From the IMG/VR virus record IMGVR_UViG_3300013126_000088, positions 1-38,823 of that record: 38,823 nucleotides of DNA. The stretch is one strand, 5' to 3'. Under the pieces are notes generated by a model that searched no databases, had not been told where the DNA came from, and worked only from the letters and a program-made list of their open reading frames with translations. The DNA is from a virus. A program made the position numbers and the translations under genes. Each line of letters opens with the position of its first letter. Position 1 is the stretch's first letter. Positions 12,246 through 37,208 of this stretch are shown here, piece after piece.

Positions 12246-12353
12246 TCACAGATTTGTTCTTTTGTTACAGATGCTGCATAATGCATTATCTTCATCAGTA
12301 TCTTTCCATGTACTTTCTTTTTTGTAACTTAATTCGCGTATTACATCTTTCAT
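12246..12353 (-). CDS. Very small CxxC protein, 35 aa
   Basis: The ORF runs from an ATG at 12353 to TGA at 12246 and encodes a charged peptide ending in ALCSICNKRTNL, with one CxxC pair. Its ATG overlaps the stop codon of the upstream gene as TAATG, a common coupling arrangement in this genome, and it fills an otherwise empty 120-base gap. A single CxxC could bind zinc as a dimer. Function unknown. Confidence 0.55.
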   Translation of the reverse strand: MKDVIRELSYKKESTWKDTDEDNALCSICNKRTNL

Positions 12354-13144
12354 TACATCAAAGAATTAAGTTTTTGATTAAGTTTTATGTTGTTTTTAAT
12401 CATTGCTTCTTTATGGTCTTTTGACCATTTAATATTTATAATTTTCCAGCGATTAATAGAATCTTCAACATATTCTTTTTGGTGTTTTTCCCATTTTTCT
12501 TTACCATATTCTTTTGCTGGAGCATCATCAGGTATTTCTTCCCATTTTTTAGTAAGTGTCCTGTATTTATCTTCTTTAATAAGTATTTCTAAAATTTGAT
12601 CATCCGTTAATGAAGAGTTTTTAGTAATTTTTTCATCGTCTAAAGCAATTGATTTTAAATTACTTTCTATTTCAGAATTAATCTTTTCAAACTTTGTCAT
12701 TTTCTTAATCTTTTCCGCATAAATTTTTGATATTGTATCAGATTTAGTGCGAGGCAAACTAGTTTTTGTGATATAACGATAATGTAACTTTTGAATATTG
12801 TAACCACCAGCATAAATAGCTTCTGTTGTAAAATAATACGAATCTTCTCCTCTATTTATTTTTGCATTTATTTCAATGTTTCCTTTTACTGAAGTATAAC
12901 AATTAAATGAAACAAGTACATCCGTAGGAAGAGTATAAATTTCAATTGACTTAACCAAATCATATGTAAGATTAAGTTTAATCATTTCTTTTTGGTAATT
13001 AGAAAACATTTTTCCGCCCTTTGCTATAGCAGCAGACTCTATTCGTTCAACCATTGAAGTAAGAGTTTGTTCGAGTGATTGTAGAATAGTATTAACTAAA
13101 TTGTCTTTATTTGACTCTAAAAGAAATTCATTATATTTAAGCAT
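12353..13144 (-). CDS. Putative capsid-targeted internal protein, 263 aa
   Basis: The N-terminus MLKYNEFLLES matches the leader shared by several proteins here (aromatic, two residues, Phe-Leu-x-Glu), with a predicted gp21-type cut after residue 10 (LLE, then Ser). The body is soluble and mostly helical, rich in Lys and Glu, with a beta-rich middle near residues 70-130; I recognise no enzyme motif. Packaging into the head and ejection with DNA is inferred from the leader. Unlike the other leader-bearing genes, it follows an early-type promoter rather than a late one, which weakens that reading somewhat. Confidence 0.65.
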   Translation of the reverse strand: MLKYNEFLLESNKDNLVNTILQSLEQTLTSMVERIESAAIAKGGKMFSNYQKEMIKLNLTYDLVKSIEIYTLPTDVLVSFNCYTSVKGNIEINAKINRGEDSYYFTTEAIYAGGYNIQKLHYRYITKTSLPRTKSDTISKIYAEKIKKMTKFEKINSEIESNLKSIALDDEKITKNSSLTDDQILEILIKEDKYRTLTKKWEEIPDDAPAKEYGKEKWEKHQKEYVEDSINRWKIINIKWSKDHKEAMIKNNIKLNQKLNSLM

Positions 13145-20344: not shown

Positions 20345-21036
20345 ATTTTTAGACTTTCAAATTTGAATTTATTTTCTATTTCTTTCACAACTTCTTGTAC
20401 TATTTCCAGTGTATTATTACCTTCGCCGTTTATATGAAATATTAAAATTTCGCCACCCTTTAAATGATTTTTAACATAATCAATTGTTGCTTCTTTTGTG
20501 TCAAAGCTAACTGATGACGATTGTTTATCTGATACATATCCTGACCAAGACGCAAATTTTAAATCTAAAGTAGAAAGGATTTTGTGAGTATCTTCATTAG
20601 GTCTACCCCAAGGAACCCTGTACCATTTTATATCAATGTCTAAATTATCTTTAATGAAATATTTGCATTTAGCAACATCTTCATATTGTTCATCAAATGT
20701 CATATGAAATGGTCTTTTATGATTAAACCCATGACCTCCAATAGAACATAAAGGCGATTTTAAAAATAACAAATCTTTATCGGAATTAAGTTCATACCAT
20801 TTTACATTTAAAAAAATTGTATGTTTTATTTCGTGTTCATGTAGCCAATTTATGACATCATATGAAACAATTTTTGTTGGGCATGTATCAAAAGTCAAGT
20901 AAATACAATTATCATTTAAAGAAGTAATTTGCAAAGGGTCAAAAAATCTATCATTATGTCCCTTAATATCAATATACTCTTTATATGTTTTGAAATGCCC
21001 TAATATAGGCAGATTGTTTTGTTTATTATTCGTCAT
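20341..21036 (-). CDS. Polysaccharide deacetylase-like protein (NodB / CE4 fold)
   Basis: NodB-fold motifs in order: YLTFDTCPT at residues 46-54 (motif 1), GHGFNH at 101-106 with His102 and His106 (motif 2), RVPWGRP at 140-146 (motif 3), ASWSG at 162-166 and ILIFH at 197-201 (motif 5). CE4 enzymes remove acetyl groups from chitin oligomers, peptidoglycan or capsule. In motif 1 the usual second Asp (TFDDGP), a metal ligand, is Thr51, so activity may be altered. No signal peptide is visible, so the protein acts in the cytoplasm, in the virion, or is released at lysis. It overlaps the gp16-like gene by 11 bases. Confidence 0.8.
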   Translation of the reverse strand: MTNNKQNNLPILGHFKTYKEYIDIKGHNDRFFDPLQITSLNDNCIYLTFDTCPTKIVSYDVINWLHEHEIKHTIFLNVKWYELNSDKDLLFLKSPLCSIGGHGFNHKRPFHMTFDEQYEDVAKCKYFIKDNLDIDIKWYRVPWGRPNEDTHKILSTLDLKFASWSGYVSDKQSSSVSFDTKEATIDYVKNHLKGGEILIFHINGEGNNTLEIVQEVVKEIENKFKFESLKI

Positions 21037-21631
21037 CTTCGTCTACTTTATTTCCCAATTCTTCTTGTATATCTTTCATTAAATTACGAGTACCTCTAAC
21101 TTGTGTAGGACCTCCTGAAATTTCAAATTTTTTAGGGGTTTTGTCTCTTTCATCAGCATATATATCAATGTCTCGTTTAATTTTTTTAATAGATTCTTCT
21201 GTTGCTAAAACTTGTAATGTTTGATGTTTCATAATATCAAGCATTGTTTTTTGCATTCCAGCTAAAACCTCAAACATTCTAGGTGAAGTTTCACCGCTAT
21301 CTATAGTAGACATTAATGTTTGTATTGCTCTATCTGCAATTTTTACTTGGTTTATTAAGTTTCCTAATGTTACCGCTTCTAGGTTTGCCTTAGCTTGTAT
21401 GTATTCGTTTTTATTTATTACATCAGAAGATAAGTAAAATTTAAGCAAATTATTAACAACACCTCTTGCTTTGTTTGCACTTTTTGTTGTAACATCAACA
21501 TAATCAATAGGTGCAATTTTAGGTTTAAATGACGGTAATGTATTTTGACTTACTACATTATCATCATCTGATGTTGGGTTTAATAATGAATCTATAGATT
21601 CTTTAAGTTCTTGTTTTGTATCATCTTTCAT
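21026..21631 (-). CDS. 16: Terminase small subunit (gp16-like)
   Basis: The 201 aa contain a central helical region and the segment SGETSPRMFEVLAGMQKTML near residues 112-131, which resembles the T4 gp16 core with its ESPRAFEV-type pattern; the N- and C-termini are acidic and probably disordered. It would form rings that recognise DNA and stimulate the gp17 motor. It starts one base after the LamG-like gene ends. Annotation rests on this motif, size and position in the packaging block. Confidence 0.78.
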   Translation of the reverse strand: MKDDTKQELKESIDSLLNPTSDDDNVVSQNTLPSFKPKIAPIDYVDVTTKSANKARGVVNNLLKFYLSSDVINKNEYIQAKANLEAVTLGNLINQVKIADRAIQTLMSTIDSGETSPRMFEVLAGMQKTMLDIMKHQTLQVLATEESIKKIKRDIDIYADERDKTPKKFEISGGPTQVRGTRNLMKDIQEELGNKVDEDDE

Positions 21632-25436: not shown

Positions 25437-26390
25437 TTATTTTTTAATGATCATTTGTAATTTAAACACAAGAGAAAGTAAAGTGATCACTGGATCTATC
25501 ACAAATCGTAATTCATATGAATGTTTATTTACTTCATAACAAATTTCACCAATTTTGTGATATATTAGCGGTTTTTCCAATTTAATAAATTCAAGAAAAT
25601 CTTGTCCTAATGCAGCAATTGCATCATCTACACGATTAGAATAATTTGACACAATATATTGGTAATTCTCAACTTCTGTTTTATTTGCAAAAATAAATTC
25701 AAACAAATCTTTATGTACCCCGTGAAATTTAGTTACATCACTGAATGTTATTTTTTGTTTGCCTTCAGCATAAAAACCTTGAAGCGTATTAACAATGGAA
25801 CGCATATCAGGGAACTTTCGTTTAACAAGTTCAAGTAATGCTTCCTTTTCAATTCCAATACCTTCCGTTTTTAAAATTTGATAAACTCTTAAAATATACT
25901 GTTTCTCTATTTCAAGAGATTCATCAGGATTAAAGTCAAATGAAATACATTCAAAACGACTTTGTATATTATCAGGTACTTTGTTAATATAATTACATGT
26001 TGCAATAAAACGAGCTGTTTTTGCAAATCGTTCTATTTCTCCGCGGAGACCTTTGAAAAATTGGTCAGACGAAACACCATCAATCTCATCAAATATAACA
26101 TATTTCAATTGTTTTTCGCCATCTAATACCGATAAAGAAGAGCAAAATTCAACAATTTTAGTTCTTAAAACTTCTATTGAACTTTCAGTCGAACAGTTAA
26201 TATATAAATGTGGATTATCTTTAACTAAAATTTTAGCAGCAGAAGTTTTTCCGCTACCACAGTTGCCATATAATAGTATATTTTGATACAACCCATTTGA
26301 AAGTTTATCAGATATACGTTTAGGTAAAATAAGTTCTGTTAAAGTAGATGGACGGTAACGTTCCGTCCATAAAGCAGCTTTTGGATTCAT
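25437..26390 (-). CDS. 44: Sliding-clamp loader ATPase subunit (gp44-like)
   Basis: AAA+ ATPase that opens and loads the polymerase clamp. It begins WTERYRPSTLTELILP (residues 8-23), with Walker A GNCGSGKT at 42-49, Walker B VIFDEID at 98-104, sensor 1 TCN at 131-133 and the arginine-finger motif QSRF at 143-146. The 317 aa equal T4 gp44 (319 aa). A middle-type promoter motif lies just upstream (26398-26421). The gp62-like partner and RNase H follow. Confidence 0.95.
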   Translation of the reverse strand: MNPKAALWTERYRPSTLTELILPKRISDKLSNGLYQNILLYGNCGSGKTSAAKILVKDNPHLYINCSTESSIEVLRTKIVEFCSSLSVLDGEKQLKYVIFDEIDGVSSDQFFKGLRGEIERFAKTARFIATCNYINKVPDNIQSRFECISFDFNPDESLEIEKQYILRVYQILKTEGIGIEKEALLELVKRKFPDMRSIVNTLQGFYAEGKQKITFSDVTKFHGVHKDLFEFIFANKTEVENYQYIVSNYSNRVDDAIAALGQDFLEFIKLEKPLIYHKIGEICYEVNKHSYELRFVIDPVITLLSLVFKLQMIIKK

Positions 26391-27894: not shown

Positions 27895-28476
27895 TTATTT
27901 TTCAAATTTTTGTAAATATTTTTCACCTTTTCCTTTTTGTGTTGAATACCAATTGTTTACATTTGCATTTAATTCTTTACCATCTAGAAAATATGACTTA
28001 TATATAACGTTTCTTCCGTCATTTTTGCCAACTTCAGCAACAACTATTTCAAGCGCAAATTCTTTCTTACCTATATAAGAACCACCCATTTCAAATGAAG
28101 AATCTCCAATTTTCTTTTGTTCACTTCTCTTCCCATAAATTGTTACTATATCACCTACATGAACTTCTTTATCAGGTGTAAGTGATTCATTAACAGATTC
28201 ATCTAACTTCATGTAAGTTTTTGATTTTAAAAGTGAATTAACATACTCTATTAAATTTTTATATATGTCTGCTACTTTACCGACGTTTTGAGTTCTTCTT
28301 ATAGTTAATACCTTTAGTATTTTTTCAGTAAATTCTTTATTATTTGTTGGTTTTTCATGTTTTTTTACAAATTCTATAACCGAATCAAGATATGATGAAT
28401 CTTTTGGCACTATCAGCATTTCATTTAAGAATTCATCAAATTTAAGGAACTGTTTTTTGTTTTCGTTTATTGTCAT
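27895..28476 (-). CDS. Putative capsid-targeted internal protein, 193 aa
   Basis: The leader motif FDEFLNE lies at residues 13-19, slightly further in than in its relatives, with a predicted cut after Glu19. A second possible site, VNES, occurs near residue 96. The N-terminal half is helical; the C-terminal half (from about 103) looks like a small beta barrel of the SH3/KOW kind (HVGDIVTIYGKR...YIGKKEFALEIVVAEVG). Last gene of the late operon that starts at 31107. No enzyme motif is visible. Confidence 0.68.
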   Translation of the reverse strand: MTINENKKQFLKFDEFLNEMLIVPKDSSYLDSVIEFVKKHEKPTNNKEFTEKILKVLTIRRTQNVGKVADIYKNLIEYVNSLLKSKTYMKLDESVNESLTPDKEVHVGDIVTIYGKRSEQKKIGDSSFEMGGSYIGKKEFALEIVVAEVGKNDGRNVIYKSYFLDGKELNANVNNWYSTQKGKGEKYLQKFEK

Positions 28477-28533: not shown

Positions 28534-28764
28534 TTAGAAAACTTTTACATTGGTGAAATTTACGCCATGTGTTTCTGATTCATTTTTCCAAGCTTTATCC
28601 AAAGAAGATAGTGCCGTTTGTATATGCTTAATAGTATCATCATCCATGTATTTTTTATTATCTTTTAAAAAATAATAGAATTCGATAAAAGCAGATGAAA
28701 AATTATTAATTGTCATAGAATTTTTACCTTCGCTTATAAAAGTTTCAAAGTTTTGTAATTTCAT
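28534..28764 (-). CDS. Putative capsid-targeted internal protein, 76 aa
   Basis: Begins MKLQNFETFISEGKNS: leader with aromatic-x2-F-I-S-E and predicted cut after Glu12, then Gly as in T4 sites. The mature part would be about 64 residues, helical and charged, similar in size to T4 internal proteins. It follows the ATP-grasp fusion gene by 16 bases in the same operon. Confidence 0.7.
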   Translation of the reverse strand: MKLQNFETFISEGKNSMTINNFSSAFIEFYYFLKDNKKYMDDDTIKHIQTALSSLDKAWKNESETHGVNFTNVKVF

Positions 28765-28780
28765 AATATTTTATTTTATT

Positions 28781-30265
28781 TTATTTTTGGATAAACTTTA
28801 TACCTAAATGATTATCTCCTTTAGTATCTTTTGCTGAATATTCGCCATCAAATTCCGTAAGCATAAATGTTTTATTAGGTGCAACAGATACACCAAGTCT
28901 CTCCATAAATTGTCTATTTGCTAAAAATTTTGTACTTTTATCTTTTCTATCAGCTAAAGAAACTCTAACATTTTCATATTTTTTACCCATGAAAATAATG
29001 TCTATTTCGATAATAGGTCTTTCGTGTACATCATTACCAACTTCAGCATTTGATGTGCCTTTTATTTTATGCGTAAATTCATTTTTACCTAAAGACCATG
29101 TAACTGTTTTACCATCCTCCGAAATTTTCATTTTATCATAAGTCAATGAAGATGAAAGAGCACCATTACCAGTATCAAATTTTGCAACTATATCACCAAT
29201 ACCTTCAATAGTTATAACTTCACGATAACCAATAGTTCTTTTTGAACGAGTCCAGTTTTCTTTATCTAAAACAAAGTCAATCACATCTTTAACTACATCT
29301 ATACCTGTTGCTTTTTTAAGACCTTGTGTACCAGGTGAAGAATTAACTTCAAGTACATAATTTTTCTTACTTTTCTTGTCTACTATTATATCAACACCGC
29401 ACCAATTGCAACCTACTGCTCGTGCTGCTCTTATTGCTAAATTCTTTTGTTCTTCTGTAATCTCTACTTTATCAACTGTTCCACCGAGAGAGTAATTAGT
29501 TCTAAAATCTTTCTTAATTTTATTTCTGCGCATTTGCCCTAAGATAACAGCATCATCTTCTGTTGGTTTAGGTGAGTTAAACTTTTTTGATAACACATGA
29601 ATTCTTAAATCATGGTCTGACTCAATTTTTTCTTGTACCAAAGTTTCAATTGAAGGATCTACTTTCCATAAAGTTTGTAAAACTGATTTAAGTGACGCTA
29701 AAGAATCTATTATTGAAACACCTATACCATGAGAACCACTAAGCATTTTCAATATAAGAGGAAATTCACCTCCTATAAATTCAACTGCTTTGTCTATTGA
29801 ATCTTCACCGTCAATAATTGCTGTTCTAGGAGTTTCAATACCTTTCTTTACAAATAATGAATATGTTGTGAATTTATTTTCGCATGCTAATATTGAATCA
29901 AGCGTATTAACAACAAAGAAATTTGCATCTTCTAATTTACTAACTAAATCTCTAGTATACGTATTTTTTACAACACCACGGCGAGTTAATATCACAGTTT
30001 TCTCAGAATCGATTTTTACCTTTGTTTTATGCTTATCTTCTAAAATGAATCCTGTTTTATCTTTTTGTTCTGATAATGTACATGCATTAATATCAACTAC
30101 AGCAAAACTAATGCCTCTTGACTCACATTCTTTTTTAAGTGCTGGTACCGTGTATGATTCATCACTAATGTTTGATAATAATACAATATTTAGCTTTGAT
30201 GATTTTTTAATTTTATCATCTTTTGCTTCATTTAAGAAGTCTTCATAACTTTTTATAATTTTCAT
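28781..30265 (-). CDS. RimK-like ATP-grasp ligase fused to a RimB/retropepsin-like domain, with capsid leader
   Basis: Three parts. (1) Leader MKIIKSYEDFLNEA with a predicted prohead-protease cut after Glu13. (2) Residues about 24-335 form a RimK-type enzyme: N-terminal domain to 125, then ATP-grasp with the ILKMLSGSHGIGV nucleotide loop at 171-183, and metal site LEVNSSPG at 305-312. Such enzymes join amino acids (glutamate in RimK) to a carboxyl group of a protein or peptide. (3) Residues about 345-470 match the aspartic, retropepsin-like family often named ATP-dependent zinc protease/RimB: FDTGNGALSSSL with Asp364, RPIIEIDI at 416-423 and LANRQFMERLGV at 448-459. Late operon, so made at head assembly. 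Target unknown; ribosomal S6 is the classical RimK substrate. Confidence 0.85.
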   Translation of the reverse strand: MKIIKSYEDFLNEAKDDKIKKSSKLNIVLLSNISDESYTVPALKKECESRGISFAVVDINACTLSEQKDKTGFILEDKHKTKVKIDSEKTVILTRRGVVKNTYTRDLVSKLEDANFFVVNTLDSILACENKFTTYSLFVKKGIETPRTAIIDGEDSIDKAVEFIGGEFPLILKMLSGSHGIGVSIIDSLASLKSVLQTLWKVDPSIETLVQEKIESDHDLRIHVLSKKFNSPKPTEDDAVILGQMRRNKIKKDFRTNYSLGGTVDKVEITEEQKNLAIRAARAVGCNWCGVDIIVDKKSKKNYVLEVNSSPGTQGLKKATGIDVVKDVIDFVLDKENWTRSKRTIGYREVITIEGIGDIVAKFDTGNGALSSSLTYDKMKISEDGKTVTWSLGKNEFTHKIKGTSNAEVGNDVHERPIIEIDIIFMGKKYENVRVSLADRKDKSTKFLANRQFMERLGVSVAPNKTFMLTEFDGEYSAKDTKGDNHLGIKFIQK

Positions 30266-30280
30266 TAAATTATTCTTATT

Positions 30281-30556
30281 TTAGTACAGTTCCAATTCTG
30301 ATGAATCAATCTTATGATCATCTATTAACATTTCAACAAATTCCGCTAATCTGTTGGTTTTATCAAATTCAAATACGTTTGTGCTTGTTTGTTTTCCAAA
30401 TTTTTTAAAAGAAGTATCTTTAAATATTTCTCCAACAGTTTTTGCATATTTTAAACTAACTTCAACTGTTGTGTAGTCAAAATCATAAATATTATTTATA
30501 AATTTTATAGTATTTGCGGATTCGTTTATGAACGAATCAAAGTTTAATAGTTTCAT
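30281..30556 (-). CDS. Putative capsid-targeted internal protein, 91 aa
   Basis: Begins MKLLNFDSFINESANT: leader and predicted cut after Glu12 before Ser, exactly the T4-type consensus. The mature part is about 79 residues, helical with an acidic C-terminus (MLIDDHKIDSSELELY). Its ATG overlaps the stop of the zinc-ribbon gene (ATGA), so it is co-translated in the late operon and immediately precedes the ligase fusion. Confidence 0.7.
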   Translation of the reverse strand: MKLLNFDSFINESANTIKFINNIYDFDYTTVEVSLKYAKTVGEIFKDTSFKKFGKQTSTNVFEFDKTNRLAEFVEMLIDDHKIDSSELELY

Positions 30557-31107
30557 GTTTTTAAATTATCTTTTAGGTAAGAGATTATAATATATTCTCT
30601 TCGTTTTATTTTATTTTTAAGCATTTCAGAAAACTTATAAGAAGAATCTATTACTGCTGTTTTTATTGTTGACTTATTTAAATATATTTTAGCACATCTT
30701 TCACAGCAAAAGTTTTCGGGTGAAAAGTTTTCTTCATGTGCAATAATATCTGTTTTGCAATATGCACATTTCCATTTGTGTAATTTTTTAGCTTCTTTTA
30801 ACTCAGACTTTTTGCCTAAAACTGTTTCATTATCTATGTTTTCAATATATATACGATTATGTCTTTTAGGATTTACATCTAATCTTGATTCTATTCTAAA
30901 AATAGCTTCTACAAAATCTAGATAATCATCGTCTTCCATATATCTTTTAAAAATAATATTATTTTCTAAAACCTTTAAATGTAATGGCTTTATAAAAAAC
31001 CTATGTATTCTATGCTTACCCATTGGTGAATTTTTAGACGTGGGCGTAACATTTATATCATCAATTTGATATGAAAGTTTTGGTTTTACTAGGTGTCGTT
31101 TTTTCAT
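30553..31107 (-). CDS. Basic zinc-ribbon protein, 184 aa
   Basis: A CAYC pair (near residues 114-117) and a CCERC group (near 134-138) could hold one zinc ion in a treble-clef or ribbon fold. The rest is very basic, with many Lys and Arg at both ends, which suits nucleic-acid binding. No capsid leader. First gene of the late operon that encodes four leader-bearing proteins, directly below a late-type motif (31116-31132). Its role in that operon is unknown. Confidence 0.7.
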   Translation of the reverse strand: MKKRHLVKPKLSYQIDDINVTPTSKNSPMGKHRIHRFFIKPLHLKVLENNIIFKRYMEDDDYLDFVEAIFRIESRLDVNPKRHNRIYIENIDNETVLGKKSELKEAKKLHKWKCAYCKTDIIAHEENFSPENFCCERCAKIYLNKSTIKTAVIDSSYKFSEMLKNKIKRREYIIISYLKDNLKT

Positions 31108-31115
31108 ACAGTGAC

Positions 31116-31132
31116 TTTAAATATATATCTTT
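31116..31132 (-). promoter_or_regulatory. Late-type promoter motif before the internal-protein operon
   Basis: The minus strand reads AAAGATATATATTTAAA, nine bases before the start at 31107. It is a variant of the motif before the capsid and tail genes and ties this operon to late transcription. The rest of the 31133-31242 stretch shows no ORF. Confidence 0.6.
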
Positions 31133-31242
31133 ATGAATATGTGAGTATATGCTAAAATAAATTATGCATTTTAAAGCTTATTAAAGTGTTTATTATTGTA
31201 GATGTTAATACTATAAAAAATTGACAAATACTTGAATATACG

Positions 31243-31272
31243 AAAAAAAGGCAGTCTATTAGACTGCCTTTT
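31243..31272 (-). terminator. Strong hairpin terminator
   Basis: Arms GGCAGTCTA (31250-31258) and TAGACTGCC (31260-31268) extended by A/T pairs, followed on the minus strand by seven Ts (31243-31249). It ends the transcript of the genes at 31295-32037. A single GTTAAC box and a weaker one 10 bp away (31274, 31284) stand just before it. Confidence 0.88.
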
Positions 31273-31294
31273 AGTTAACATAATTTAACAAAAA

Positions 31295-31507
31295 TTATTT
31301 TTTTGCTTTATAATTATCAAGTATCATACAAATAGCTTCGGTATAAACTTGTTCCGTTGAAACCGGCATAGCTGTATACCAATTTTCTCCAAGAAAATGA
31401 TTTATTAAAACTGATAAACCGTCTTCTGCTGATATTGGTGGAAAGCAAACACCGTAATCAGTTGGATCTTTTTTATACAAATTTTTTAAAAGTTCTTCGC
31501 TTGTCAT
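31295..31507 (-). CDS. Hypothetical protein, 70 aa
   Basis: Small acidic soluble protein, predicted helical, with a Lys-rich end; not recognised. It is three bases after the membrane-protein gene and just before a strong terminator. Confidence 0.66.
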   Translation of the reverse strand: MTSEELLKNLYKKDPTDYGVCFPPISAEDGLSVLINHFLGENWYTAMPVSTEQVYTEAICMILDNYKAKK

Positions 31508-31510
31508 ATT

Positions 31511-31693
31511 TTATGAGTTAAGTTGTTCATCTTCAATGTTTTCTTTTTTATCACTATTTAAAGAGTCAAATACTTTAGGAGAAACGAGCAATGCGAAAAG
31601 TGGTAAAAGAGAACTTGCTGAATAAATTGCAAATCCAATCAATGCATAAAATGCAATTGATATTAATGGCGATGATTGTGTTGATTTGTTCAT
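31511..31693 (-). CDS. Small membrane protein, 60 aa
   Basis: Residues of about 9-38 are hydrophobic (ISIAFYALIGFAIYSASSLL then PLFALLV), enough for one long or two short membrane segments; the C-terminus is acidic and polar. Size and layout would fit a holin or other envelope effector, but such small proteins are not diagnostic and no endolysin lies beside it. Confidence 0.62.
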   Translation of the reverse strand: MNKSTQSSPLISIAFYALIGFAIYSASSLLPLFALLVSPKVFDSLNSDKKENIEDEQLNS

Positions 31694-32363: not shown

Positions 32364-33989
32364 TTATACTAATTGTCCGAAAGCAGCATTAATATAAACA
32401 CCTGTAGTAAAGTACATAGTTTCTGGTTTGAAACCTGCTTCAACGATTGCGAAACGGGACTTAACAGCCACTTTTGGTGCCATAGTACCCTCAGCGATAG
32501 TTTGAACAGATTCTGCCATCAAATAAGGCATAAATACAAGACCTGGTGAATTACCGTCACCTTTACGACCTACACAAATACGAGTATCGTTCCAAGCCAT
32601 GTTAGGATCATTGTATACTGCAAGACCATTCAAAGTACCAACTGGATAAAGTGATCCACCCATTTGATTCAATGTGTTAGCCATAGGAGCAGCAATAAAT
32701 CCAGCAACATCTTGCAATGCAGAACATACTTGACCGTTTGTTACAACGAAAGTAGCAGGACCACGACGACCACGGATAGAAATCAAGTTAGCAATTGCAA
32801 GCAATTTAGACATGATTTTACGTTGACGCGTATGCAAGTTTTCAGAAGCAGCGTTAACAACTTCAGTAGCACCCATAGTAGCACCCTTCAATGTAGCAGA
32901 ACCTAAGTATGCACCCATAGCAGTAGCGGTATTAGCGGTAGCAGAACCAGATACTGTAACAGCAGTAGCACCTAAGTTAACAAAGAAGTTAGTTCCTTGT
33001 GTACGGATTACTTGTTCGTGATTTTTTTCTCCCAATACAAACATTCTTCCCAGGATGTTTTTATTGATGTCTTGAGTTAATTCGTTAATAAGTACAGATT
33101 CTACCTGAGAAACTGCATCAATACCGAACTGTTTCAAGTCTTGAATTTGTTCACGAGTAACAGCAGCAGCAACTTGGAATGTTTTAGCTTCAACTGATTT
33201 GTTGAATAAAGTTAAGTTCATGATGTTATCCTGGGTGTTTTCACCTTGTTCACGAGAATAAGGATCATTTACACCTGTAGTAAAGTCACCATTAGCAAAA
33301 CCTTGTCCAGAGAATCCTGTGATATGATCTTCAAGAGCTTTAACTAATTCAATAGTTAAACCAGCAGTAGCACCAGTAACACCACCAATACCAGTAACAC
33401 CAATAGCTGTTGTAGCAACAGTTAAAAGAGTACCTGTAGAAAGAGTACCTCCAACATGGAAGATTGGATAACCATCAAGACGAGAAGCACCAATATAAGA
33501 AAGAGTTACACCGTTAATAGCGCTAGAAGTTGCACCAACAACAAATGCAGGAACTGCAGTTGAACCGTAGTTAACTTTTACCATTAATGGAATATTTGCA
33601 CCTGTACCAGCTGTTTTACCACCACCGTATACGAAGTCCATATAAGTTAATACACCCATTGGACCAGGCATTGGAATTACAGGAAGTAAATCCAAACCGA
33701 TTGTTTGTGCAGCTACTTGCATAGCCAAAGGTAACAAAGAGTGAGCTTTATCACCAGAACCAGTTTCTTGAGTACCAAAAGCAGACTGAGTTCCTGGGTC
33801 ACCCGGGAAACGAGTTGCTCCCATACCATTTACAGCTCCTAATTGTGCATAAGAATTAGATTCATAAAGTTCGTGATAATGACAATATTTAGACATCCAA
33901 TTCACTTTATTACTATCAGTAATACCAGTGTTTGATTCGATGATTTGTCCCCATTTACCAACGATTTCAGATTCGTTAATTAAATACAT
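32364..33989 (-). CDS. 23: Major capsid protein (gp23-like)
   Basis: Position after gp20 and gp21 and the size (541 aa; T4 gp23 521 aa) identify the main head protein. Typical segments include LGAVNGMGATRFPGDP near residues 50-65, YSREQGENTQ near 250, MNLTLFNKSVEAKTFQVAAAVTREQIQDLKQFGID in the middle, and RGRRGPATFVVTN near 407-419, in the HK97-fold region. T4 gp23 loses its first 65 residues to gp21; here (L/I)xE sites lie after Glu6, Glu18 and Glu43 (LYE, then Ser), the last being the likeliest. The gene is visibly less AT-rich than its neighbours, as expected of a highly expressed gene. Late promoter at 34063 and a strong terminator. Confidence 0.93.
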   Translation of the reverse strand: MYLINESEIVGKWGQIIESNTGITDSNKVNWMSKYCHYHELYESNSYAQLGAVNGMGATRFPGDPGTQSAFGTQETGSGDKAHSLLPLAMQVAAQTIGLDLLPVIPMPGPMGVLTYMDFVYGGGKTAGTGANIPLMVKVNYGSTAVPAFVVGATSSAINGVTLSYIGASRLDGYPIFHVGGTLSTGTLLTVATTAIGVTGIGGVTGATAGLTIELVKALEDHITGFSGQGFANGDFTTGVNDPYSREQGENTQDNIMNLTLFNKSVEAKTFQVAAAVTREQIQDLKQFGIDAVSQVESVLINELTQDINKNILGRMFVLGEKNHEQVIRTQGTNFFVNLGATAVTVSGSATANTATAMGAYLGSATLKGATMGATEVVNAASENLHTRQRKIMSKLLAIANLISIRGRRGPATFVVTNGQVCSALQDVAGFIAAPMANTLNQMGGSLYPVGTLNGLAVYNDPNMAWNDTRICVGRKGDGNSPGLVFMPYLMAESVQTIAEGTMAPKVAVKSRFAIVEAGFKPETMYFTTGVYINAAFGQLV

Positions 33990-35384: not shown

Positions 35385-37208
35385 TTAACGATTAAAACGA
35401 CGTTTCATTTCAGCAGCTACTCGTTGCACATATTCGTTATTTTCGTATTTAGAACTTTCAATTGTTTCATTAAGTACATGAACTGATTCATTTACGGTAT
35501 CAACTTTAACTTCACGTAAATCGCGAGTTTCCCAGAAATTTAGTATCTTATATTCAGTATCTAATGAACGAATAGAAGCTTGTGCTTTAATTGATTGTTT
35601 TTGATTTTCATTCAATGAATTCCAAGAAGGTACAAATTTAGCAGGCATATTAACCAACCAATTTAATGTAACATTTTCATTTACTTTTTCTTTTAATGTG
35701 TCAAGTAATAATTGGTCTGCTTGTGCAGGAGAATAAATTTTTGCACTTTCAAATACTTTTGATACTTCAGCTTTTTTATCATCACCTAACTCATTGTAAA
35801 TTGATAGAGATGATTCAGATAACATTTTAGTAAAATCTTTGCTTTCATTTACTTTAGCTTTTTCTTTTGCATCTGCAATAAGAGCATCAAGTCTGCTTGT
35901 GATTGATTTTTTGTAATCAGCTGATTCTTTAACTATAACATCTTCATTATTATTCGATTTTCCTTCTAGTAAAATTCCTTCATTAATTCTTTCAACAACC
36001 ATTTGTTGATATGACATTGAATTTTCAAGGTTTTCTTTAAGATATTCACCGTAGGCTTTTACTGCTTGAACACCTTCAATAATATAATCACTATGAGAAA
36101 TTGAGTTATCAAGATGTTCCGCTATGTAATTTTGATAATCAAATAATTTATTTGCACCTTCAATAATATGATTATTATGAGAGATAATATTATCAATATT
36201 TTCATTCATATAATTTTGATATGCAAAACGTTGATTAAGACTTTCAGTTAAACCTTCAGTATAAGAAATTGACTGGTCTGTTTTTTCAGCTACAAGTTTT
36301 ACATAATCTATAACTTTATCAACCGACTCAGCAACCTTTTCTGAATAGTTTATACCATTTTGTGTATTTTCTTTTATGTATTCTACATAACTTTTAACAT
36401 TATTTAAACCATCTATAATATAGTCATTATGAGAAGTTAAACTTGTTATGGTTTCCGATAATACACTAATTTGATTTTTTAAATCTGTTATTTCTTCCGC
36501 GGATTCATTTTTAGTTGAATTTTCTAAAGTAGTTTTGAATTTCTCGAATTCTTCTTTCATATATTTAGAATATTCATTAAAACTTTCTTCCGTGATAAAT
36601 TTTTGATTATTCATTTCGTTTGTTTTATTTTGTATTTCTTTTGTTTCTGTAATAAGTTCATTAGATTCAGGAAGCTCATATATTGCAATTGTATCTGAAC
36701 CTGCAAATCCATAAGATTCGTTAACTCTTTCTAATTGTGCATTAGAAAATCCTGGTTTTGCGACTAAATCATAAGTAAACATTTTTTTGATTTTTACGCG
36801 ATTATTATTGTCAACTGAACCTGCTGCACGAGATGAAATATGAAGAGGAATACCTGCATCAACTAATGCCATTGCTTCTTTTCCTGCTGATGTATTAAGA
36901 AGACGTATTCTACCACGAATAGTATCTGTTGCATTATCATATTCAAGAGATTCAATAACATGTGATACATTTTTAAGAGAAATGTCAAAAGATGCTGGAT
37001 GATCTAATTCGCCAAGAAGTTTATTGTTTTTGAGTTCTTCTTGTAATGCTTTTAAATGTGGCATCACCTCAGACTTGTCATATATCCTATTATTGTTATT
37101 CTTAACACCAATTTCAGTAAATACACCTTCAAGTATATATTTACCATCTTCTTTAATTGTTGATAGATTAACAGCAGAACGTTCTAATATTAATAAGTTT
37201 TTACTCAT
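35385..37208 (-). CDS. 21: Prohead protease fused to scaffold (gp21 plus gp22-like)
   Basis: The first 170 residues are the gp21 serine protease: YILEGVFTEIGVKNNNNRIY at 24-43, LLGELDHPASFD with His70, RIRLLNTSAGKEAMAL near 100-114, HISSRAAGS with the Ser125/126 pair, and YDLVAKPGFSNA near 146-157. From about residue 195 a long coiled coil follows, as in the gp22 scaffold, with five tandem 28-residue repeats at 259-398. T4 makes protease and scaffold from separate genes; here they form one 607-aa chain. Several (L/I/V)xE sites (for example RVNE before Ser at 164) could let the protease free itself and digest the core. Late promoter directly upstream. Confidence 0.9.
   Translation of the reverse strand: MSKNLLILERSAVNLSTIKEDGKYILEGVFTEIGVKNNNNRIYDKSEVMPHLKALQEELKNNKLLGELDHPASFDISLKNVSHVIESLEYDNATDTIRGRIRLLNTSAGKEAMALVDAGIPLHISSRAAGSVDNNNRVKIKKMFTYDLVAKPGFSNAQLERVNESYGFAGSDTIAIYELPESNELITETKEIQNKTNEMNNQKFITEESFNEYSKYMKEEFEKFKTTLENSTKNESAEEITDLKNQISVLSETITSLTSHNDYIIDGLNNVKSYVEYIKENTQNGINYSEKVAESVDKVIDYVKLVAEKTDQSISYTEGLTESLNQRFAYQNYMNENIDNIISHNNHIIEGANKLFDYQNYIAEHLDNSISHSDYIIEGVQAVKAYGEYLKENLENSMSYQQMVVERINEGILLEGKSNNNEDVIVKESADYKKSITSRLDALIADAKEKAKVNESKDFTKMLSESSLSIYNELGDDKKAEVSKVFESAKIYSPAQADQLLLDTLKEKVNENVTLNWLVNMPAKFVPSWNSLNENQKQSIKAQASIRSLDTEYKILNFWETRDLREVKVDTVNESVHVLNETIESSKYENNEYVQRVAAEMKRRFNR
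35973..36434 (-). repeat. Tandem 84-bp coding repeats in the scaffold part
   Basis: Residues 259-286, 287-314, 315-342, 343-370 and 371-398 align without gaps as 28-residue units (four heptads), plus a partial sixth to about 412. Conserved features are S-(H/Y) at the start, (I/V)-(I/T/A)-(D/E)-(G/S) at 7-9, an aromatic at 16, and an ending such as ENxxNSI. This is a coiled-coil ruler-like array. Confidence 0.85.

What the first reader, a model, noticed from the sequence alone, without database searches (positions are those of the whole stretch)
28781..30265. RimK-type ligase and RimB/retropepsin-like protease fused in one chain with a capsid leader
One protein carries an ATP-grasp ligase domain (ATP loop at 171-183, EVNSSPG at 306-312) and a C-terminal retropepsin-like domain with the DTG triad at 364-366. 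In bacteria RimK adds glutamates to ribosomal protein S6, and RimB-like proteins are encoded beside it. Joining the two opposing activities, and adding a leader for head packaging, would make an enzyme ready to act on host proteins (for example the ribosome) at the moment of DNA entry, before any phage gene is expressed.
Basis: partly seen in the sequence, partly recalled or inferred. Interest (0 to 1): 0.87.

Follow-up and report, generated by a model that had tools for sequence, protein, structure and literature searches.

The report
Packaged phage glutamate ligase-protease fusion
A large tailed phage encodes one protein that joins an enzyme resembling the bacterial one that adds glutamates to a ribosomal protein with a protease resembling the one that removes them, behind a short tag of the kind phages use to pack proteins into the head, so it is probably carried in the virus particle and delivered into the host cell at infection.

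Summary
ORF 28781-30265(-), 494 aa, has a 13-residue leader, a RimK-type ATP-grasp ligase (residues 25-339; top fold match RimK 7qys, Z 30.7) and a retropepsin-like RimB/RloA domain (about 342-470; RloA2 9g59, Z 15.8, then retroviral proteases). All 46 aligned relatives keep the catalytic residues of both domains. It is not unique: about 80 fetched viral contigs (more were cut off) encode the same fusion, as do Pelagibacter phage Mosig and Yersinia phage YerA41. The leader (FLNE|A) matches T4 internal-protein leaders (FIAE|A), sits on six window genes and about 40 otherwise unrelated genes of a 294-kb relative, and the window encodes a gp21-family prohead protease. Published proteomics found the YerA41 homologue in virions; it carries the different leader shared by other YerA41 virion proteins. 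Bacterial RimB-RimK hybrids were published in 2025, in the opposite order. New here are the phage-wide K-then-B fusion and its link to head packaging. The ribosome target is unproven: RimK's polyglutamate track is only partly kept, and the score falls far below the S6-ligase cut-off. I judge it a virion-delivered glutamate writer/eraser of a host protein; S6 is one candidate.

The parts
28781..30265 (-). RimK-RimB fusion protein, 494 aa
30227..30265 (-). N-terminal capsid-targeting-type leader, residues 1-13 (MKIIKSYEDFLNE), predicted cleavage after E13 before A14; low-confidence helix in the model
   Evidence: cleavage inferred
29891..30193 (-). RimK pre-ATP-grasp domain, residues 25-125, with invariant R95 (= RimK R64)
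   Evidence: (Rimk_N, E 5e-5)
29273..29881 (-). RimK-type ATP-grasp domain, residues 129-331; invariant K173, R221, R255, N257, D292, E306, N308
29330..29350 (-). EVNSSPG motif of the ATP-grasp active site, residues 306-312
28856..29242 (-). RimB/RloA retropepsin-like domain, residues about 342-470
29165..29176 (-). Catalytic DTG plus phage-specific N (DTGN), residues 364-367, invariant in 46 relatives
30281..30556 (-). Small gene just upstream with the same leader (MKLLNFDSFINES), 91 aa, unknown function
28534..28764 (-). Small gene just downstream with the same leader (MKLQNFETFISEG), 76 aa, unknown function
27895..28476 (-). Gene with the same leader (KFDEFLNEM, after about 12 extra residues), 193 aa
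34238..34375 (-). Small gene with the same leader (MKNIQSFEEFLNES), 45 aa
34377..35339 (-). 320-aa gene with the same leader (MNNLLTFSEFLNEN...LNEA); position between prohead protease and major capsid protein suggests a prohead core protein (inference)
35385..37208 (-). Prohead core serine protease (Peptidase_S77, T4 gp21 family), the likely cleaver of the leaders
   Evidence: E 1.7e-12; phrog_207, head maturation protease
32364..33989 (-). Major capsid protein
25437..26390 (-). Sliding-clamp loader large subunit (gp44-like), conserved neighbour downstream of the fusion

Best explanation
A bifunctional, head-packaged enzyme. The leader directs it into the prohead core, where the phage's gp21-type protease cuts after FLNE; it stays with the DNA and is ejected into the host. 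There the ATP-grasp domain ligates glutamate (or a similar amino acid) to an exposed carboxylate of a host protein, and the retropepsin-like domain, active as a dimer, trims acidic tails, so one molecule sets the length of the tail. Ribosomal protein S6 is the leading single candidate for the target, but an unidentified host protein is about as likely. Shown: both domains with intact catalytic residues, the leader shared with other genes, the prohead protease in the same genome, and (from published proteomics) virion presence of the YerA41 homologue. Inferred: cleavage, ejection, enzymatic activities and target.
For: RimK fold, Z 30.7 over 289 residues, and the residues matching RimK K141, R64, R189, R211, N213, D248, E260, N262 unchanged in 18 compared phage proteins, including the glutamate contacts R64, R189, N262 named in PMC10092738. 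Retropepsin fold, DTG invariant; the RloA substrate-ladder residues K46, R114, R137 (PMC12239564) correspond by spacing in 9g58 to invariant K362, R416, R440. Leader: 6 of 47 window genes, 0 internal; 44 of 453 genes of the 294-kb relative against 2.4 expected, 40 of them aligned and sharing nothing else; 43 of 50 distinct homologue N-termini against 5 in shuffles; same form as T4 IPII and IPIII, whose leader packages proteins (PMC3012670). T4-like and giant-phage prohead proteases cut after Glu (PMC5694885). YerA41 homologue found in virions and carrying a leader (KFEA) shared with five other YerA41 proteins, all annotated structural.
Against: No experiment on this protein. The clade L027-L034 has lost the leader (FVFQG) although one phage of that clade, G002, keeps it on other genes. 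Mosig has no other gene with the strict leader. The YerA41 particle list also holds ribonucleotide reductase and other cytosolic enzymes, so carry-over is possible, and its supplementary table could not be read. RimK residues R8, S68, H215 and R216, which line the polyglutamate and ATP sites, are not kept. The bacterial RimBK hybrid showed protease but no S6 glutamylation activity (PMC11957791).
Confidence: 0.55

Rival explanations
1. Packaged, but the substrate is a phage protein or a small molecule: for example it modifies internal or head proteins during assembly, or makes a glutamyl compound, and the retropepsin domain processes that product.
For: RimK relatives act on coenzymes and carrier proteins (MptN, CofF, LysX match at 133, 94 and 105 bits; ArgX-LysW fold at Z 30.3). 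The acceptor track differs from RimK.
Against: The RimB/RloA-type domain, whose known relatives cut polyglutamate (PMC11957791, PMC12239564), is fused in every one of the 46 aligned relatives and fits a poly-Glu product. None of the 47 window proteins has a run of four or more Glu, although one (21026-21631) ends DEDDE.
Confidence: 0.25
2. An ordinary middle-phase intracellular enzyme; the leader is incidental or only a minor fraction is packaged.
For: Middle-phase transcription in YerA41; neighbours are clamp loader, regA and DNA polymerase genes in Mosig and the clamp loader in the window clade; leader lost in one clade.
Against: Leader kept in nearly all other members across 32-67% identity and replaced in YerA41 by that phage's own virion leader; virion detection. 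The leader-bearing K-only relative of Melnitz also lies beside regA and polB, so that locus is compatible with packaging.
Confidence: 0.13
3. The retropepsin-like domain is a maturation or self-processing protease of the head and the ligase domain merely regulates it.
For: Retroviral-type fold in a protein that probably enters the prohead.
Against: A dedicated gp21-family prohead protease is encoded; the ligase active site is as strictly conserved as the protease site; Melnitz keeps the ligase and leader without the protease.
Confidence: 0.05

Closest known systems
RimBK hybrid of Desulfotalea psychrophila DP2392 and relatives in Flavobacteriales and Rhodobacterales (PMC11957791)
   Same: RimB and RimK domains in one chain; RimB part is an active retropepsin-like protease on polyglutamylated RpsF
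   Different: Order RimB then RimK, bacterial, no head leader reported; the phage protein is RimK then RimB, with a head-type leader and DTGN instead of DTGA
Separate RimK and RimB of Pseudomonas; rimK followed by rimB in Vibrio replicons (L151, L152)
   Same: Same two domains; in the two Vibrio replicons the adjacent genes lie in the same order as the phage fusion, with a gap of 48-63 bases
   Different: Two proteins, genes of bacterial replicons, no leader
RloA/RloA2 retropepsin-like peptidases of Pseudomonas (9g58, 9g59; PMC12239564)
   Same: Closest solved fold of the C-terminal domain; DTG and the Lys/Arg substrate ladder
   Different: Secreted, separate, with signal peptide
T4 internal proteins IPII and IPIII; T4 IPI and Alt as injected effectors (IPI: PMC3012670; Alt from general knowledge)
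   Same: Leader MKTYQEFIAEA, read from NC_000866, has the same form as MKIIKSYEDFLNEA; cargo enters the host with DNA
   Different: Cargo is unrelated; no T4 internal protein is known to me as a ligase or retropepsin
Yersinia phage YerA41 gp066 and Pelagibacter phage Mosig QOI68969
   Same: Full-length homologues (34% identity, 91-95% coverage); YerA41 protein found in virions
   Different: Annotated only as structural protein or putative glutathione synthetase; the protease domain is not named in those annotations

Membership tests
RimK-type alpha-L-glutamate ligase family (TIGR00768) | Score above the curated cut-off | tested here: met
   166.3 bits against 143.4
RimK-type alpha-L-glutamate ligase family (TIGR00768) | ATP-grasp fold and catalytic plus glutamate-contact residues | tested here: met
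   Z 30.7 to 7qys; R64, R189, R211, N213, D248, E260, N262 equivalents unchanged
S6--L-glutamate ligase proper (NF007764, equivalog) | Score above the curated cut-off | tested here: not met
   103.2 bits against 331
S6--L-glutamate ligase proper (NF007764, equivalog) | Complete polyglutamate track (S7, R8, S14, R64, S68, R189, N262) | tested here: not met
   R8 and S68 not kept, S7 kept or replaced by Thr or others, S14 always Thr; R64, R189, N262 kept
S6--L-glutamate ligase proper (NF007764, equivalog) | Adds Glu to ribosomal protein S6 | not testable with these tools
   needs enzyme assay
RimB/RloA retropepsin-like peptidases (PF05618, clan AA) | Pfam score above gathering cut-off for this sequence | tested here: not met
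   19 bits against 27; 38 of 46 relatives match at E up to 0.01, best 2e-8
RimB/RloA retropepsin-like peptidases (PF05618, clan AA) | Homology and fold by profile and structure | tested here: met
   Profile E 1.8e-8 to 9g59; Z 15.8, 127 residues, 2.8 A
RimB/RloA retropepsin-like peptidases (PF05618, clan AA) | Catalytic DTG | tested here: met
   Invariant D364 T365 G366 in 46 sequences
RimB/RloA retropepsin-like peptidases (PF05618, clan AA) | Dimer with shared active site | not testable with these tools
   only monomer prediction available
Bacterial RimBK hybrids | RimB domain N-terminal to RimK | tested here: not met
   RimK is N-terminal; RimB was residues 1-163 in DP2392
T4-type internal proteins with capsid targeting sequence | N-terminal 10-20 residue leader ending in Glu at a cleavage motif, shared by unrelated genes | tested here: met
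   motif rule from PMC5694885
T4-type internal proteins with capsid targeting sequence | gp21-family prohead protease in the same genome | tested here: met
   Peptidase_S77 at 35385-37208, E 1.7e-12
T4-type internal proteins with capsid targeting sequence | Found inside mature virions | not testable with these tools
   for this phage; for the YerA41 homologue reported by LC-MS/MS (PMC7354516)

The most novel reading that the evidence does not exclude
A virion-delivered writer and eraser of polyglutamate tails on host ribosomal protein S6, which retunes host translation at DNA entry; in hosts with rimK but no rimB it would bring an eraser the cell lacks. This would be a phage counterpart, for ribosomes, of T4 Alt for RNA polymerase.
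Probability: 0.22. Interest if true: 0.87.

Novelty: new variant of a known kind. Interest (0 to 1): 0.62.

Why it matters
It would show that phages carry ready-made control of a rare ribosome or protein modification into the cell. The family appears in about 80 fetched viral contigs, from jumbo phages to marine myophages, and in cultured isolates (Mosig, YerA41), so the role of glutamylation in phage takeover can be tested directly. The fused form also offers a single-chain system for studying how RimB regulates RimK.

Tried and rejected
T4-type late promoters (TATAAATA): 8 matches, no more than chance, so nothing can be said on timing in this phage. Cellular K-then-B fusions: the genome scan gave only L090 and L091 as relatives reaching the protease domain; both are on short contigs of uncultured bins and L090 bears a leader-like N terminus, so I take them as misbinned phage. 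The scan used two peptide patterns taken from phage proteins and could miss cellular ones. Two plasmid hits spanning both domains turned out to be adjacent separate rimK and rimB genes. A leader like FVFQG on other genes of G002: not found. A poly-Glu substrate encoded in the window: none with four or more Glu in a row. S6 tails of likely hosts were not examined because the host is unknown and no genome handle of a fitting group was at hand. Foldseek on the whole chain shows only RimK-like folds, so the C-terminal domain was folded and searched alone. Four paper searches for RimK-type or S6-modifying proteins together with phages found no description of a packaged phage RimK-RimB fusion; most subscription papers are not held.

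Full report
What is there. The window is a 38,823-base virus record, a fragment, 29% G+C, from a large T4-like phage. Its major capsid protein is closest to a 462-kb uncultured phage and then to Prevotella Lak phages, Sphingomonas phage PAU and Tenacibaculum phage PTm1, so a Bacteroidota host is plausible but not shown. ORF 28781-30265 (minus strand) encodes 494 residues.

Domains. Residues 25-339 are a RimK-type ligase: Pfam RimK E 1.8e-36, RimK-family model above its cut-off, profile E 1.7e-51 to Pseudomonas RimK. The AlphaFold2 model (pLDDT 83) aligns to 7qys with Z 30.7, 2.5 A over 289 residues. Residues from about 342 to 470 are a retropepsin-like domain of the RimB/RloA kind. The single sequence misses the Pfam cut-off, but a profile of 12 relatives matches 9g59, 9g58 and 2pma, and the domain folded alone (pLDDT 88.5) matches RloA2 at Z 15.8, Legionella Lpg0085 at 15.6 and RloA at 15.0, then foamy-virus, HIV and Ddi1 proteases at about 8.

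Are the active sites alive? In 46 aligned relatives K173, R221, R255, N257, D292, E306, N308 and D364-T365-G366-N367 never change. Aligned with Vibrio RimK and RimB, the residues that contact glutamate in the RimK structure (R64, R189, N262; PMC10092738) are kept, S14 is always Thr, and R8, S68, H215 and R216 are not kept. So the chemistry looks like RimK, while the acceptor track has changed. On the protease side, PMC12239564 names K46, R114 and R137 of RloA as contacting poly-Glu in a model; the spacing 68 and 23 fits K, R and R of 9g58, which correspond to invariant K362, R416 and R440. This mapping is mine, by spacing. The RimB motif DTGA is DTGN here.

How widespread. Those that could be read in full extend over both domains; one, L035, is cut by its contig end. 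In named phages the full length occurs in Mosig, YerA41 and GN1. Genome bins gave two, both probably phage. Vibrio replicons hold adjacent rimK and rimB in the same order, so the phage form could have arisen by fusion of such a pair (inference). Melnitz phages have a K-only relative with a leader next to a translational regulator and polB; S-RIM8 has a K-only relative with no leader.

The leader. The window protein starts MKIIKSYEDFLNE|A. T4 IPII and IPIII start MKTYQEFIAE|A, the leader used to pack proteins into T4 heads (PMC3012670); T4-like and giant-phage prohead proteases cut after Glu, and T4 leaders are 10-20 residues (PMC5694885). The strict motif is found at 6 of 47 window N-termini and in none of 10,574 internal residues. 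All six genes lie between 27.9 and 35.4 kb, around the capsid gene and next to a Peptidase_S77 prohead protease. In the 294-kb relative G001, 44 of 453 genes carry it against 2.4 expected; 40 of these, aligned, share only the leader, with E14 invariant and mean identity 9%, and one matches a PHROG named internal head protein. Of 50 distinct homologue N-termini, 43 have [LIVM]xE[AEDQ] in the right place, against 5 in shuffles. YerA41 is a strong case: its homologue lacks this leader but has ARRLLNKFE|AAD; the motif h..KFE[AGS] occurs at six YerA41 N-termini against 0.18 expected, and all six, the homologue included, are annotated structural protein. With 63 of 201 gene products found in particles, five of five for the others would be about 0.003 by chance (my arithmetic, assuming that the structural-protein annotation reflects the mass spectrometry). 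Exceptions: the clade L027-L034 lost the leader; in Mosig the fusion is the only gene with the strict motif.

Virion evidence. PMC7354516 Table 3 marks g112 'Ribosomal protein modification protein' as identified by LC-MS/MS in purified YerA41 particles, middle-phase transcription. g109 and g110 are the ribonucleotide reductase genes, which equal YerA41_063 and _064; two genes on is _066, the homologue. The equation is by order and description. The list also holds ribonucleotide reductase, so carry-over cannot be excluded, and the supplementary table could not be opened.

How it most likely works. Packaged through the leader, cut by the prohead protease, ejected with the DNA, then adding Glu to and trimming Glu from a host protein. 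Steps shown: domains, residues, leader, protease gene, virion presence in a homologue. Steps inferred: cutting, ejection, activity, target. S6 is the natural candidate because RimK and RimB act there (PMC11957791), and Enterobacterales often have rimK without rimB, so YerA41 could bring an eraser its host lacks. Against S6: the equivalog score, the changed track, and the lack of observed S6 glutamylation by the bacterial RimBK hybrid.

Comparison and novelty. RimB-RimK hybrids are published with RimB first (PMC11957791). I found no paper on a phage fusion, on the K-then-B order or on packaging, within a library that lacks most subscription papers. I therefore call it a new variant of a known kind.

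Noticed in passing
G001 (IMG/VR contig behind L004/L012, 294 kb), loci L121, L125, L128, L130-L134: About 40 otherwise unrelated genes share the leader MKNxPTFxEFxNE|x in several clusters; a very large set of candidate injected proteins, nearly all of unknown function.
   Followed up: partly
L125:9748-10218 (-) and L130:4415-4987 (-): Two leader-bearing proteins begin with YHGG/YYHGS stretches suggestive of ADP-ribosyltransferases; one leader protein of the set matches ART-PolyVal (E 0.0011), as T4 Alt would lead one to expect.
   Followed up: no
YerA41 (L117-L119): A second, different leader (LNxKFE[AGS]) on six proteins annotated structural; looks like a lineage-specific head-packaging signal.
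   Followed up: partly
L005:7455-8429: A second RimK-like ATP-grasp gene directly downstream of the fusion in this contig.
   Followed up: partly
L027-L034: One clade of the fusion has FVFQG in place of the LxE leader, while phage G002 keeps the LxE leader on about four other genes.
   Followed up: partly
window 12353-13144: A further possible leader, MLKYNEFLLESNKD, which fits the loose but not the strict motif.
   Followed up: no
window 30553-31693: Small genes between the capsid gene and the fusion; 30553-31107 has Cys pairs like a zinc ribbon (CAYC...CCERC) and no family match.
   Followed up: no
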